Shown: in pieces, positions 14,852 to 47,159 of the stretch
Numbering within the stretch: position 1 is the first letter of the stretch
Layout: every line of letters starts with the position of its first letter
From: Diatrype stigma
Lineage: Eukaryota > Ascomycota > Sordariomycetes > Xylariales > Diatrypaceae
Direction of reading: 5' to 3'
Assembly (NCBI GenBank): GCA_022225965.2
Contig: JAKJXP020000004.1
Location: 372,001-436,000 of the forward strand
DNA: 64,000 bases
The notes under the pieces: generated by a model
What the model was told of the DNA's origin: nothing
Seen by the model: only the letters and a program-made list of their open reading frames with translations
Databases searched by the model: none
Program-made: the position numbers and the translations under genes

Positions 14852-16766
14852 CTACATGCCCGTAAACTTCTTGAACACCTCATTCTCCGCCCGATCAAAC
14901 TCCGCCAGGACCGTCTCCCTTATCTTCTCGGACCTGACCACGGGCTTGCACGCGTAGTCCTTGGCGCAGTAGAGGAACCCCTGGTGGTACCCCGTGACGG
15001 GGTCGCTGTCGACAGGCACCGGCCTGCCATCCGGGCCCTCCTTCCTCTCGAACCGGAACGCCCACATCAGCTTCGCGATGGACAGCACCATGTTGCGCTC
15101 GGCGAGGTACATGCCCGGGCAGATGCGCCGCCCGGCCCCGTAGCCGAAGTGGTCGCGCTTCTGCCAGTCGCCGCCCGCCACGTACTCGGGCGCCAGGAGC
15201 GGGTGGTTCGCGTACCTCTCCGGGATGAACTTCTCCGGCTCGGTCCATACCTGCGGGTCCATGTGCATGCCCCACACGTTGAGGATGACGATGGTGCCCT
15301 TGGGGAGGAACTTGCCCTCCACCCAGTCATCTGCAAAAGAGTTTTTAGCTGCGCACTAGCTAGGTAGGTGATATATGGGTGGTTGGGAAAGCGAGGGTGC
15401 GATTGTTGCGTCGAAGAGAGAGGGAGAGAAAGACCTGCCTACCTTGGCCCAGGGCGTGGGGGAAGCAAAGCGGCAGAATAGGCCGCCATCGGTGGCCCTC
15501 CTTGACGATCATGTTGATGTACGGCAGCCTGTCCAGATCGGACCAGACAGGCGACCGATCCTCGCCGACGGCGGCGTCCAGCTCGCGGTGGGCCCTCGCT
15601 TGGACCTCGGGGTTGAGGACGAGGGCCTGGATGATGGCGAGGATGAGCGACGAGGACGTGTCGGAGCCGCCCTCCATCAGCACGCCGCCGATGAAGCGGA
15701 GCTGGTCGCGCGGCAGCTGCAGCTTGTCCTGCTGGTCGAGCACGACGTCCATGAAGGAGGGCCCGGAGACGCCGCTGTCGTCGCGCCGCCGCTCGACCTC
15801 CCGCAGCGCGTCCTCGTACAGGTCCTCCATCTGCTTGCCGACGCCCAGAGACCGCGTCTTGTAGTTGCCCAGCAGCTGCTGCGGGACCGCCTTCAGCCAG
15901 GGGAAGATGTCGACCGGTGGCGTGTTGCCGGTCTCCATCAGCTGCGACCAGGACTCCATCAGCGTATACAGGCGCTGCATGTAGACAGACCTGACGTGAG
16001 GAGTTCGGAAGCCGAAGACTGAGTGGTGTCAGTATGAGTAAGCTTGTTGCTTACGGCAAAGCGACGTGAGAACGTCTTAAAGAAGTGGGGGCTGTGTGGT
16101 CGAACCTATCGAGTTGGTGATACTATTGCTGAAGCGCTTTGGATGCTTCATATGATCTTCCGGAAAGAGCATGTAGTCTCGGACCAGTTGGATGGCTTCG
16201 GCATTGACAATGGATAGGTGTTCACGCTCGACCATCCTCTCGGTCAGGTGCTGGTGGATAAGCCGGCGGAAGGTCCGCCACTTGTCTCCATAGAACATGG
16301 CGAGAAGATGGTTCCCCTTCGTGATCAGATCGTGCGAGACGTAAGAGCCAGGCCGGTGGCTGTATATGTTACTCTTCTTGTCTACGGTATCCTTGACGAT
16401 ACGGCGGTCCGTTATCACCGCCATCGTCGAGCTGCCCAGCTTGAGAGTGTATAGGCCCCCATACTGGCGAGCCCACTCCGTGAATCTGTCTCGTGTAAGT
16501 CACAGGCGACTGGCTGTGGGTATACGGTCACCGTTGCTCACTTTACGTGTGTATAAGCGGTAGGCATTTGGTGAAGATTGCCAATGAACGGCAGGGTTTT
16601 TGGCCCTTTGATCCGCTAAGTTAGTTCTATCACTGGGTGATCTGCGCCGTCTATAGGGCGGCTCACCAGAGGGCATGTCCTTCCTACGATGTCCATAATT
16701 GAAAGCACCGTAGACCAAGTACAACACAATGGCAACCAGGCCCGTGATCCAAATAGATGGTAGCAT
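14852..16766 (-). CDS. Cytochrome P450 (CYP619-like, cluster copy 1)
   Basis: Predicted 532-aa membrane-anchored haem monooxygenase in five exons: 16766-16667, 16605-16542, 16485-16106, 16018-15443 and 15330-14852. An N-terminal anchor (about residues 4-20) is followed by the proline-rich hinge MPSGPKTLPFIGN. The I-helix has EGGSDTSSS, the K-helix ExxR is EGHRWRP, and the haem loop is FGYGAGRRICPG with Cys444. Intron 1 needs the unusual acceptor CAAAG to restore the hinge. It is a close paralogue of the P450 at 18081-19948, sharing the 64-nt second exon. In the patulin pathway two related P450s (PatH, PatI) hydroxylate m-cresol and then m-hydroxybenzyl alcohol. By context this gene and its partner are good candidates for those steps, but which does which cannot be told here. 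Confidence 0.9.
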
Positions 16767-44400: not shown

Positions 44401-47159
44401 GGTCGCCGCTTGTCCCTGGCACGAAGTGGGTACATAAACCCTTCTGGAGGAAAGTTGAGAGCGGTGCCCCTTCGAATGGCACCAGTCTCACCCATGATGT
44501 GGATAAGCACACCCTCCTGGGCCTGCGTAGTCCTATAGGTGGTACCAATATGGTGCTTTACACAACAAAGTTGGACAACAACACCAAGCCGTTCCCGGGC
44601 AGCCACCCGCTTCACGGTACTGAGATCGTGCCAGCTGCCGTCTTGGTGAATACCTTCCATCAAGCAACCGGGGCCACGACACTTTCTAACATTACGCTGC
44701 GGGTACCCGTGGCCGTCAGTGCTCCTCGCGATATCCAAGTGGTGGTAGATGATGACAAGGTTAAGATTCTTTCACGTCTGCAGAAGCAACAGGACGGCGG
44801 AAATGACATCAAGTCGGAAGACGACCAGGCATGGGCTACTCACACCACGGGTCGGTGGAGTCATATCACCGAAAAGACCTCCCATGCCCTGCAGATAGAT
44901 ATCGAAGCGATCAAGTCTCGCATTAAGGATAAGCTGCCGCCCAAGTTCAGCATGGACTACCTCGACAAGGTCGGCGTCTCGGCCATGGGTTTCCCCTGGG
45001 CCGTGACGGAGCACTACGGGAATCTCAAGGAGATGCTCGCGCGCGTCGACGTAGCACCAGACCTGCCGGCCGGGGCGACCCTACCCTGGGATGCGAGCTC
45101 GTGGTCCCCCATCCTCGACGCCGCCACCTCGGTAGGCTCGACAATCTTCTTTGATAACCCGAAACTCCGGATGCCGGCGCAGATCGAGAAAGTGCACTTC
45201 TTTGTAGAGCACGGGACGCCGCCGCCAAAGACGGGCTACCTCTACGTCGAGGAGGCCTCGAAGAACAAGAACCCCGCGGTCCACGTTAGCGTCTGCGACG
45301 ACGAGGGCCGCGTCGTCGCCAAGTTCCAGTCTATGCGCTTCTCCGAGATCGAGGGCACGCCCGGCGTGGGCGGCAGCGTCGAAAGCCTAGTCCACAAGTT
45401 GGCCTGGGTGCCCGCACCGTTCGCAAAAAGTGCGGCCCCGTGGGAGAGTGCTGTCCTGGTGGCAGATGATGAGGCTACGCTTGTGCGGTACCGCACGCAG
45501 CTGAAGTTAAAGATGAGGATCCAAGATGGCAAGATCGTCGAATTCCTCACATCGGACGAAGCCGCTCGCATCGTCAGGGCAGTCGGCCCTAACACGGCTA
45601 TCGTGTACTGCCCCGGCCGAGTCGAGTCTCTGGCCGACTTGCCAGCGAAGGCAGAATTATTCCTATCGGAGTTGCTCACTCTGACGAAGCACGTGATCAT
45701 GAATCTCTCGCCATCGACCAGCAACGCCAAGGTATTCGCGATCACCCTGGCGGCCGGCCGCGGCAGCACCCCGACGGCGCTGGCGCAGGCGCCGCTCCAC
45801 GGTCTCGCCCGCATCATCGCGTCCGAGCATCCAGACCAGTGGGGCGGGCTGATCGACCTCGAGGACGAGGACGCGCCGCTGCCGAGCATGGTGCTCAAGT
45901 ACGTGCGCGAGCAGGACGTAATCCGCATCGATGACGACCTGCCGCGGGTGGCGCGCCTGCAGTCGCTGCCTCGGGACGCGCTCTACAGTGGGGAGCAGGC
46001 CGCCCTCAGGACCCTCCTCCCCAAGCCCGAGGGCACGTATATCATCACGGGCGGCCTCGGCGCGCTGGGTCTCAAGGTCGCGCGCTGGCTGGTCGAGAAG
46101 GGGGCCCGGCGCCTGGTGCTGCTATCGCGACGGGCGCTGCCTCCGCGCAAAGAATGGGCCGCGGCCCGCGGTCGCGATGATGATCTCAGCGCCTCCACGA
46201 AAGCGGCGGTGGGCGAGATCATGGAGCTGGAGCAGGCCGGCGCGACGGTGTATCCCGTGGGCCTGGACATCGCGGCCGCCAATGCGCAGACCCGGCTGCG
46301 GGAAGCCCTGGACCGGCTGGCGCTCCCGCCGGTGCTCGGGGTCGTGCACGCGGCGGGCGTGCTCGAGGACCAGCTGGTGCTGGACACGACAGCGGACTCG
46401 TTCGCGCGGGTGCTCGCGCCCAAGGTGTCGGGCGCGCTTGCGCTCCACGCGCTGTTCCCGCCCGGGACGCTCGACTGGATGGTGCTGTTCAGCTCGTGCG
46501 GGCAGCTGTTCGGGTTCCCGGGCCAGAGCAGCTACGCGAGCGGCAACGCGTTCTTGGACGCGCTGGCGGCGCACCGGCGCCAGCTGGGCGACAACTCCGT
46601 GGCGTTCCAGTGGACCAGCTGGCGCGGTCTCGGCATGGCGGCCAGCACCGACTTCATCAGCGCCGAGCTCGAGAGCAAGGGCATCACGGACGTCACGGCC
46701 GAAGAGGCGTTCCGGGCCTGGGAGCACGCCGGCCGCTTCGATGTCGATCATGCTGTCGTCCTGCGTAGCTTGTTGTTCGATGAAAAGGAGCTGCTTCCCA
46801 CGCCTCTCTTGGAAGACATCGCCGTGAGAAGGATAGGGTCGACTAAACCTGAAGGTGGCGAGCCGTCGGTGAGTGAAGGGGCATCGGGCGACAGACCCTC
46901 TGGGGGGCCCGAGCTCAAAGCGTGGCTTGACAACGCGATCAAGGAGGTGATTTCCGGCGTGCTGATGCTAGGCGGAGCTAGCGAGGTGGATGGGCGCGCT
47001 GCTATCGCTGACCTAGGGGTCGATAGCGTCATGACCGTTACGCTCCGGAGAAACCTGCAGAGCGCGTTGAAGGTTAAGGTGCCGCCGACTCTGACCTGGA
47101 GCCACCCGACAGTAAACCATCTTGTCGACTGGTTTACCGACAAACTAACAAGCTCTTAA
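41435..47159 (+). CDS. Partially reducing type I PKS, 6-methylsalicylic acid synthase type
   Basis: Predicted 1832-aa iterative PKS in three exons: 41435-41548, 41623-42695 and 42848-47159. Domain order is KS, AT, DH-like, KR, ACP. The KS has Cys213 in VDAACASSL, His348 and His389. The AT has Ser670 in GHSVGE. The DH-like/thioester-hydrolase domain has His982 in HPLHGTEIVP. The KR has TGGLGALG at 1463-1470 and Tyr1625 in SSYASGN. The ACP carries phosphopantetheine Ser1789 in GVDSVM. There is no methyltransferase, enoyl reductase, SAT or terminal TE, and length and order fit 6-MSA synthases, which build 6-MSA from one acetyl and three malonyl units with a single ketoreduction. Mellein-type synthases share the layout, but the adjacent 6-MSA-decarboxylase-like gene favours 6-MSA. 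Exon 1 encodes only a 38-residue Ser/Pro-rich lead. Confidence 0.95.

What the first reader, a model, noticed from the sequence alone, without database searches (positions are those of the whole stretch)
14852..47159. A 6-MSA cluster that looks like the front half of the patulin pathway
Nine neighbouring genes fit one pathway: 6-MSA synthase, 6-MSA-decarboxylase-like enzyme, two paralogous P450s, a cupin protein, a bicovalent FAD oxidase, a PDR pump, a Zn2Cys6 regulator and one extra reductase. These match patulin K, G, H, I, J, O, M and possibly L by family. I see no isoepoxydon dehydrogenase, PatF, GMC oxidase, late ADH, esterase, MFS or acetate transporter. Flanking housekeeping genes (SLX4 left, cactin right) bound the set. 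I infer a product that stops at, or branches from, gentisyl alcohol or isoepoxydon, with the extra reductase altering it. The sequence shows the families; the product is inference.
Basis: partly seen in the sequence, partly recalled or inferred. Interest (0 to 1): 0.82.

Follow-up and report, generated by a model that had tools for sequence, protein, structure and literature searches.

The report
Sister of the patulin gene cluster
A Xylaria-like fungus carries a nine-gene cluster that seems to build the first half of the patulin route and adds a reductase, and its enzymes belong to a separate, widespread sister branch of the patulin genes rather than to a cut-down patulin cluster.

Summary
Nine neighbouring genes (14852-47159) encode a KS-AT-TH/DH-KR-ACP polyketide synthase, a PatG-type decarboxylase, two CYP619-type P450s, a PatJ-type cupin, a BBE-type FAD oxidase, an extended-SDR reductase, a PDR pump and a Zn2Cys6 regulator, between SLX4 and cactin. 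None is of PatN, PatF, PatD or PatE type. Trees place P450A beside PatH, P450B beside proteins named m-hydroxybenzyl alcohol hydroxylase (the PatI role) and AtE, and the cupin beside PatJ, each in a separate, mainly Sordariomycete sister clade. So this looks like a sister lineage, not a truncated patulin cluster. The 'extra' reductase is no local oddity: a homologue shares the contig of a P450 of these clades in 13 of 27 contigs (about 1 expected). Likely route: 6-MSA, m-cresol, m-hydroxybenzyl alcohol, gentisyl alcohol, then cupin (with the FAD oxidase) to an isoepoxydon-type epoxycyclohexenone, the reductase acting on gentisaldehyde or on the epoxyenone. Product and reductase substrate are inference; the PKS could not be tested against mellein synthases. 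Xylarialean 6-MSA clusters, and patulin-pathway intermediates in grammicin-making Xylaria grammica, are already in print, so novelty is moderate.

The parts
14852..16766 (-). P450A, 532 aa, PatH-type (m-cresol methyl hydroxylase inferred); exons 16667-16766, 16542-16605, 16106-16485, 15443-16018, 14852-15330
   Evidence: 66% to A. clavatus PatH, 82% to Xylariaceae sp. FL1651; sister clade of PatH; model
17305..17496 (+). decayed fragment of an amidohydrolase-type decarboxylase, interrupted by stops
   Evidence: 37.5% over 64 aa to AMH, 42.7 bits; best of 100 mononucleotide shuffles 25.0; no Pfam match with X at stops
18081..19948 (-). P450B, 522 aa, PatI-type (m-hydroxybenzyl alcohol hydroxylase inferred)
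   Evidence: 86% over 396 aa to X. grammica EKO27_g6103, 76% to the Paramyrothecium protein named patI; sister clade of five proteins named m-hydroxybenzyl alcohol hydroxylase plus AtE
21648..22855 (-). RED, extended-SDR aldehyde reductase, 348 aa (about 344 if intron 2 is placed as in homologues); one GC-AG intron inferred
   Evidence: 81% to Xylaria arbuscula 'aldehyde reductase'; full-length match to aldehyde reductase II, PDB 1ujm, E 4.6e-81
25192..27533 (+). Zn2Cys6 transcription factor, 742 aa
   Evidence: Zn_clus and Fungal_trans
27864..32638 (-). PDR-type ABC exporter, about 1365 aa
   Evidence: ABC2_membrane and ABC_tran; model
34155..35953 (+). BBE/VAO-type FAD oxidase, 579 aa, signal-like N-terminus (by eye), GHDY and GYCPSVG stretches (bicovalent FAD sites, recalled); PatO family
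   Evidence: FAD_binding_4 and BBE; MtVAO615 6f72, residues 3-576, E 1.7e-126
36580..37690 (+). AMH, amidohydrolase-2 decarboxylase, 351 aa, PatG family (6-MSA to m-cresol inferred)
   Evidence: Amidohydro_2 E 7e-32; PDB relatives include 5-carboxyvanillate and salicylate decarboxylases, best hit 2f6k 'metal-dependent hydrolase'
38392..39534 (-). CUP, PatJ-type cupin, 314 aa; exons 39470-39534, 38937-39390, 38392-38817
   Evidence: 58% over 98% to A. clavatus PatJ, 76% to X. curta; HIHMFQTE and AGSLH motifs; model corrected
41435..47159 (+). partially reducing PKS, 1832 aa, KS-AT-TH/DH-KR-ACP, 6-MSA synthase inferred
   Evidence: domains; KS Cys/His/His, AT, HPLHG, KR and ACP motifs present
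9410..12139 (+). SLX4 open frame, left boundary
   Evidence: Slx4 E 1.8e-20
47768..49759 (+). cactin open frame, right boundary
   Evidence: Cactin_mid and CactinC

Best explanation
A 6-methylsalicylate cluster of a lineage that is sister to the patulin cluster. The PKS makes 6-MSA, AMH decarboxylates it to m-cresol, P450A hydroxylates the methyl group to m-hydroxybenzyl alcohol, P450B hydroxylates the ring to gentisyl alcohol, and CUP (an epoxidase of the PatJ/AtD family) with the FAD oxidase (probably secreted, judged by eye) converts this to an isoepoxydon-type epoxycyclohexenone, exported by the PDR pump under the Zn2Cys6 regulator. RED either returns gentisaldehyde or m-hydroxybenzaldehyde to the alcohol level, keeping flux on gentisyl alcohol, or reduces the quinone or epoxyenone to set the final alcohol. 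Shown here: families, motifs, sister-clade placement of P450A, P450B and CUP, recurrent contig partnership of RED with such P450s. Inferred: every reaction, the substrate of RED and the product.
For: P450A 66% to A. clavatus PatH, in a 13-row clade (100*) beside the 12-row clade of PatH and three proteins named m-cresol methyl hydroxylase (joint clade of 25 rows, 100*); P450B in a 15-row clade (100*) beside a 13-row clade (91) that holds all five chosen proteins named m-hydroxybenzyl alcohol hydroxylase and AtE (joint clade of 28 rows, 99*) (quick tree, SH-aLRT). CUP 58% over 98% to PatJ, in a 9-row Sordariomycete clade (98/94*) apart from the PatJ, lichen and presumed AtD-like clades. AtD, a PatJ homologue (62% in that paper), made the epoxycyclohexenone terremutin in a heterologous host (PMC5794859, passages). 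PatG/H/I roles and the proposed PatJ/PatO step: PMC9134587, passages. RED homologue on the same contig (same exact length, same organism name) as a P450 at least 69.5% identical to P450A or P450B in 13 of 27 distinct contigs; expected 0.56 (one reductase per 45-Mb genome) or 1.1 (two; tail 4e-14). RED and CUP homologues also share a 22,805-base metagenome contig length. No second close PR-PKS (next by score 30%; 32 of 75 candidates scored) and no second CYP619-like pair (other matches at most 44%; 81 of 170 scored) in the genome. A Xylaria grammica mutant blocked in grammicin accumulates gentisaldehyde and 2-(hydroxymethyl)benzoquinone (PMC8348278, abstract and passages), so this chemistry exists in the genus.
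Against: 14 of 27 P450 contigs show no RED homologue among the 120 listed of 522; in Neofusicoccum ribis the P450A-like and RED-like proteins lie on different contigs (SLS56_007215 and SLS56_010344); X. curta RED and CUP lie on different small contigs; Astrocystis has CUP and P450B on one contig but no RED in the list; X. arbuscula has RED but is not named in the CUP list. On the RED tree the co-located label is not clustered (13 changes, shuffled mean 13.2), and the genome holds a second RED-like gene outside any such cluster, so RED alone does not mark the pathway. 12 of the 13 contigs with P450 and RED show no listed CUP. The protein named patI from Paramyrothecium lies inside the P450B clade, and A. 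clavatus PatI itself was not a row of the tree. No shared regulator motif was demonstrated. The PKS was not placed against mellein synthases.
Confidence: 0.66

Rival explanations
1. A truncated or decaying patulin cluster: an ancestral full patulin cluster that lost patN, patF, patD and patE, with RED a bystander.
For: Front-half families only; a decayed decarboxylase fragment lies inside the cluster.
Against: P450A, P450B and CUP fall in sister clades, not inside the clades of the named patulin proteins; all nine models are open and the motifs looked for are intact; RED recurs beside such P450s. The fragment resembles a duplicate decarboxylase, not a late gene. But whether sister-lineage clusters elsewhere hold late genes was not seen.
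Confidence: 0.12
2. The cluster makes grammicin or a grammicin-like patulin isomer, with RED, CUP and the FAD oxidase doing the late steps in place of PatN/F/D/E.
For: Host relatives are Xylaria; X. grammica makes grammicin through gentisaldehyde-level intermediates and carries a P450B homologue 86% identical and a RED homologue 68% identical.
Against: No ring-opening enzyme (PatF type) was recognised; no CUP hit bears the name X. grammica (only cluster representatives are named); the X. grammica RED and P450B hits lie on contigs of different length; the product of this strain is unknown.
Confidence: 0.07
3. The end product is a simple aromatic: gentisyl alcohol or a toluquinol-like hydroquinone, CUP and the FAD oxidase being marginal.
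For: 12 of the 13 contigs with sister-lineage P450s and RED show no listed CUP, so the conserved core may stop at gentisyl alcohol.
Against: Here CUP and the FAD oxidase are open with their motifs kept.
Confidence: 0.15

Closest known systems
Patulin cluster (Penicillium expansum, Aspergillus clavatus)
   Same: PKS architecture, PatG-, PatH-, PatI-, PatJ-, PatO-, PatM- and PatL-type families; three of them placed by tree next to patulin-type proteins
   Different: No PatN, PatF, PatD, PatE, PatB, PatC or PatA type gene in the set; an added extended-SDR reductase; enzymes in separate sister clades
Terreic acid / terremutin cluster (Aspergillus terreus; Neofusicoccum parvum Np-at genes)
   Same: 6-MSA origin, PatI-like P450 (AtE) and PatJ-like cupin (AtD) (passages)
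   Different: Uses a salicylate 1-monooxygenase (AtA) instead of a decarboxylase plus PatH; none is in this set; CUP is outside the clade I presume to be AtD-like
Xylarialean 6-MSA clusters (Xylaria sp. VDL4 XyPKS30, Nemania sp. FL0031, X. telfairii)
   Same: PR-PKS with berberine-bridge oxidase, P450, LigW-type decarboxylase and a DUF gene (PMC13293291, passages)
   Different: An MFS, not a PDR pump, is in the gene list of the passage read, and no cupin or reductase is; 'aldehyde reductase' occurs 0 times in that text. Figure 13 was not seen
Grammicin pathway (Xylaria grammica)
   Same: Same genus-level relatives; gentisaldehyde-level intermediates
   Different: No cluster described in the paper searched (0 occurrences of 'cluster'); product link to this locus untested

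Membership tests
Patulin biosynthesis cluster | 6-MSA synthase (PatK) | tested here: inconclusive
   KS-AT-TH/DH-KR-ACP with the motifs looked for; no tree with mellein synthases was possible
Patulin biosynthesis cluster | 6-MSA decarboxylase (PatG family) | tested here: met
   Amidohydro_2 with decarboxylase relatives; family level only, not compared with PatG itself
Patulin biosynthesis cluster | PatH and PatI P450s | tested here: met
   P450A: sister clade of PatH, 66% to it; P450B: sister clade of proteins named m-hydroxybenzyl alcohol hydroxylase and AtE; A. clavatus PatI not in the tree; sister, not nested
Patulin biosynthesis cluster | PatJ cupin and PatO FAD oxidase | tested here: met
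   CUP 58% to PatJ over 98%; PatO by family only
Patulin biosynthesis cluster | PatN, PatF, PatD, PatE within the cluster | tested here: not met
   none among the nine assigned genes. In the rest of the window and in models over 20 kb left and 10 kb right none was recognised, but these were judged mostly by eye; genome-wide presence not tested
Terreic acid cluster | salicylate 1-monooxygenase AtA in the cluster | tested here: not met
   no such gene among the nine assigned models
Terreic acid cluster | AtD-clade cupin | tested here: inconclusive
   CUP lies outside the clade of A. floccosus and the Neofusicoccum 'epoxidase', but AtD itself was not a row of the tree
Grammicin pathway | production of grammicin | not testable with these tools
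   needs metabolite data

The most novel reading that the evidence does not exclude
In the Xylaria subclade of this host, the cupin epoxidase and the reductase have both shifted function. From the window protein to the first fork shared with other genera outside this subclade the path is about 1.2 changes per column for CUP (shared stem 0.76 with X. curta and Astrocystis) and about 0.65 for RED (shared stem 0.44 with X. arbuscula and X. curta), against 0.17 and 0.22 for P450A and P450B; a rough comparison, since families differ in rate and P450B of Astrocystis is itself long (0.48). CUP and RED would act as a pair that turns gentisyl alcohol into a previously unassigned epoxycyclohexenone or a grammicin-like patulin isomer without PatN, PatF, PatD or PatE.
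Probability: 0.15. Interest if true: 0.6.

Novelty: new variant of a known kind. Interest (0 to 1): 0.42.

Why it matters
It recasts scattered 'patulin-like' genes in Sordariomycetes and Botryosphaeriales as one sister lineage with a recurrent reductase, gives a concrete candidate (the reductase) for the branch away from patulin, and makes the origin of patulin-type chemistry in Xylaria, including grammicin, testable by a few gene deletions.

Tried and rejected
Truncated-patulin reading: rejected as the main view on the trees. RED as a unique local insertion: rejected on contig partnership, but RED is a common family and a second copy at C16:27322-28543 stands outside any 6-MSA cluster, and the label 'co-located' is not clustered on the RED tree, so I do not claim a pathway-specific RED clade. 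A second patulin-like locus in the genome: the AMH paralogue on C140 (51-53%) has no recognisable cluster around it; a distant cupin on C25 (34%) lies beside an FAD oxidase and an SDR and matches other cupins better.

Regulator motif: CGG-Nn-CCG counts in nine promoters did not exceed Markov-resampled sequence for any n from 0 to 15 (fewest resamples reaching the count: 13 of 100, n = 9). k-mer enrichment gave AGTTCCAG in 4 of 9 promoters, equal to the largest maximum of 30 resamples. In the whole window its 11-base form AGTTCCAGAAG occurs twice (27 of 100 shuffles reach that), GTTCCAGAA 3 times and AGTTCCAG 5 times (3 of 100 shuffles each; patterns chosen after seeing the data). Left open.

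Structure of the cupin family (X. curta protein with 34 relatives): mean pLDDT 56; best PDB matches are small cupins at E 1.3e-3. Treated as weak support only. My first cupin model (294 aa) wrongly removed 60 in-frame bases; and the tree used it; corrected and the tree redone. P450A was shortened from 538 to 532 aa; searches used the longer form. Pfam scan of the gap 16767-18080, three + frames: nothing; other gaps were not scanned with Pfam. Not used: genome-contig scan, second fold job.
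Full report
What is there. The window is C4:372001-436000 of a 49.0-Mb, 224-contig fungal genome. The closest named relative of the reductase is Xylaria arbuscula (81%), and of the cupin X. curta and Astrocystis (76% and 75%), so the host is Xylaria-like; no name was available. I modelled genes with a codon-usage Viterbi script and then set splice sites by hand. Nine cluster genes fill 14852-47159: P450A (-), P450B (-), RED (-), Zn2Cys6 regulator (+), PDR pump (-), FAD oxidase (+), AMH decarboxylase (+), CUP cupin (-) and PKS (+). 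Left lie photolyase and SLX4, right cactin, a forkhead gene and a UDP-glycosyltransferase. All nine final models are open, with no internal stop.

Enzymes and motifs. The PKS (1832 aa) has KS, AT, TH/DH, KR and ACP domains and every motif I looked for. AMH is an amidohydrolase-2 protein whose solved relatives include several aromatic decarboxylases; it keeps the HHH, SHAGG and GSDFPY stretches that I recall as metal ligands of this family. The FAD oxidase matches MtVAO615 over its full length, with the aligned GHDY and GxCPxVG stretches; that these bind FAD bicovalently is recalled, and the signal-like N-terminus is judged by eye. CUP carries HIHMFQTE and AGSLH, the two cupin metal motifs as I recall them; the first pattern is found in 49 and the second in 51 of 54 relatives of at least 240 aa. 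RED matches aldehyde reductase II (1ujm) end to end, with the YAASK stretch and RGTTR aligned to RGTAR; NADPH preference is inferred from recall.

Relationships. The protein search with both P450s gave 796 hits, 120 listed. Of these, 113 under 600 aa were compared with each window P450. P450A is 66% identical to A. clavatus PatH and best matched by Xylariaceae (82%); P450B is best matched by Sordariomycetes and Botryosphaeriales (up to 86%, an X. grammica fragment). In a quick tree of 58 rows (56 chosen hits plus the two window proteins), P450A lies in a 13-row clade beside the 12-row clade that holds PatH and three proteins named m-cresol methyl hydroxylase; P450B lies in a 15-row clade beside a 13-row clade (support 91) with five proteins named m-hydroxybenzyl alcohol hydroxylase and AtE, the fifth of them paired with AtE. 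The protein named patI from Paramyrothecium lies inside the P450B clade; A. clavatus PatI was not a row. The cupin search gave 78 hits, all listed; in a tree of 38 rows (37 of the 78) CUP lies in a 9-row Sordariomycete clade (one row a metagenome protein) apart from PatJ. Three enzymes thus show the same pattern: next to, not inside, the clades of the named patulin proteins.

The reductase. The search with RED gave 522 hits, 120 listed. The listing gives the longest contig of each hit, and an identical length to the base in the same organism is taken as the same contig. Of 27 distinct contigs that carry a P450 at least 69.5% identical to P450A or P450B (29 of the 113 rows compared; metagenome row P0208 left out), 13 also carry a listed RED homologue: Xylariaceae FL1651, FL0016 and FL1019, Xylariomycetidae FL0641, Poronia, Hypoxylon NC1633, Nemania serpens, Nemania FL0031, Xylaria intraflava, Ustulina, Paramyrothecium, Aplosporella and Colletotrichum plurivorum. 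The 13 contigs range from 33 kb to 6.6 Mb, so gene distance is unknown. Counter-examples are told under evidence against. RED and CUP homologues also share the 22,805-base contig length (metagenome, P0093 and P0155), and two chromosome-scale contigs (Bombardia, Paramyrothecium), which weigh little.

How it probably works. By the roles of the patulin proteins (PMC9134587, passages) the set would run from 6-MSA to gentisyl alcohol. The next step is proposed there for PatJ and PatO without proof. The best functional anchor is AtD, which in a heterologous host turned 3-methyl-1,2,4-benzenetriol into terremutin and is 62% identical to PatJ (PMC5794859, passages). CUP is therefore read as an epoxidase giving an isoepoxydon-type product. 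RED may return gentisaldehyde to gentisyl alcohol: the X. grammica mutant TR-74 accumulates gentisaldehyde and 2-(hydroxymethyl)benzoquinone (PMC8348278, abstract and passages), which is what loss of such a reductase, or of CUP, might give; the disrupted gene is not named in the passages read. Or RED reduces the epoxyenone. I hold the first slightly likelier, because RED partners P450s also on 12 contigs without a listed CUP.

What is missing. No PatN, PatF, PatD or PatE type gene is in the set. Outside it, an SDR lies at 2070-3352 of the window and an MFS transporter at C4:368880-370955, both beyond SLX4 and photolyase; neither was tested for kinship to patulin proteins. The rest of the flank models (20 kb left, 10 kb right; among them an FAD-dependent monooxygenase-like protein at C4:438041-439441) were judged by eye only. 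In the genome the next PR-PKS match by score is 30% identical (short pieces up to 49%; 32 of 75 candidates scored), and P450s outside the cluster match P450A's nearest relative at 44% or less (81 of 170 scored).

A relic. Between P450A and P450B, on the opposite strand, about 64 codons resemble the N-terminal part of AMH but hold stops (37.5% identity, 42.7 bits against a largest value of 25.0 in 100 mononucleotide shuffles). A second decarboxylase gene, 51% identical to AMH, stands alone on C140.

Novelty. Xylarialean 6-MSA clusters with P450, LigW-type decarboxylase, berberine-bridge oxidase and DUF genes are in print (PMC13293291, passages), and a 6-MSA/mellein PKS family is noted for Hypoxylaceae and X. 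hypoxylon (PMC8403587, passages). Among the titles listed by the searches (some lists were cut) I saw none on a sister lineage to patulin or on the reductase; the library holds open-licence papers only, so this is not proof of absence. A genome paper on a grammicin producer that I recall (X. grammica EL000614) is not among those listed.

Noticed in passing
window 17305-17496: Decayed amidohydrolase fragment inside the cluster, opposite strand to its neighbours.
   Followed up: partly
G000:C140:36777-37845: Second PatG-like decarboxylase gene (51% to AMH), open as modelled, without a 6-MSA cluster; by eye its neighbours include an MFS transporter, an aspartic protease and a GH43-like protein.
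   Followed up: partly
G000:C25:61407-67335: Another FAD oxidase - cupin - SDR set (families by eye, cupin by match); the cupin is 34% identical to CUP and nearer to other fungal cupins. May be a separate epoxide-type cluster.
   Followed up: partly
G000:C16:27322-28543: Second copy of the reductase family, 74% to a relative in Xylariaceae FL1651, outside any 6-MSA cluster.
   Followed up: yes
window 22540-22602: Reductase gene appears to use a GC-AG intron (GCACGT...TAG).
   Followed up: partly
window 17160-17170 and 32938-32948: The same 11-base word AGTTCCAGAAG upstream of P450A and of the PDR pump; 27 of 100 shuffles have as many, shorter cores 3 of 100.
   Followed up: yes
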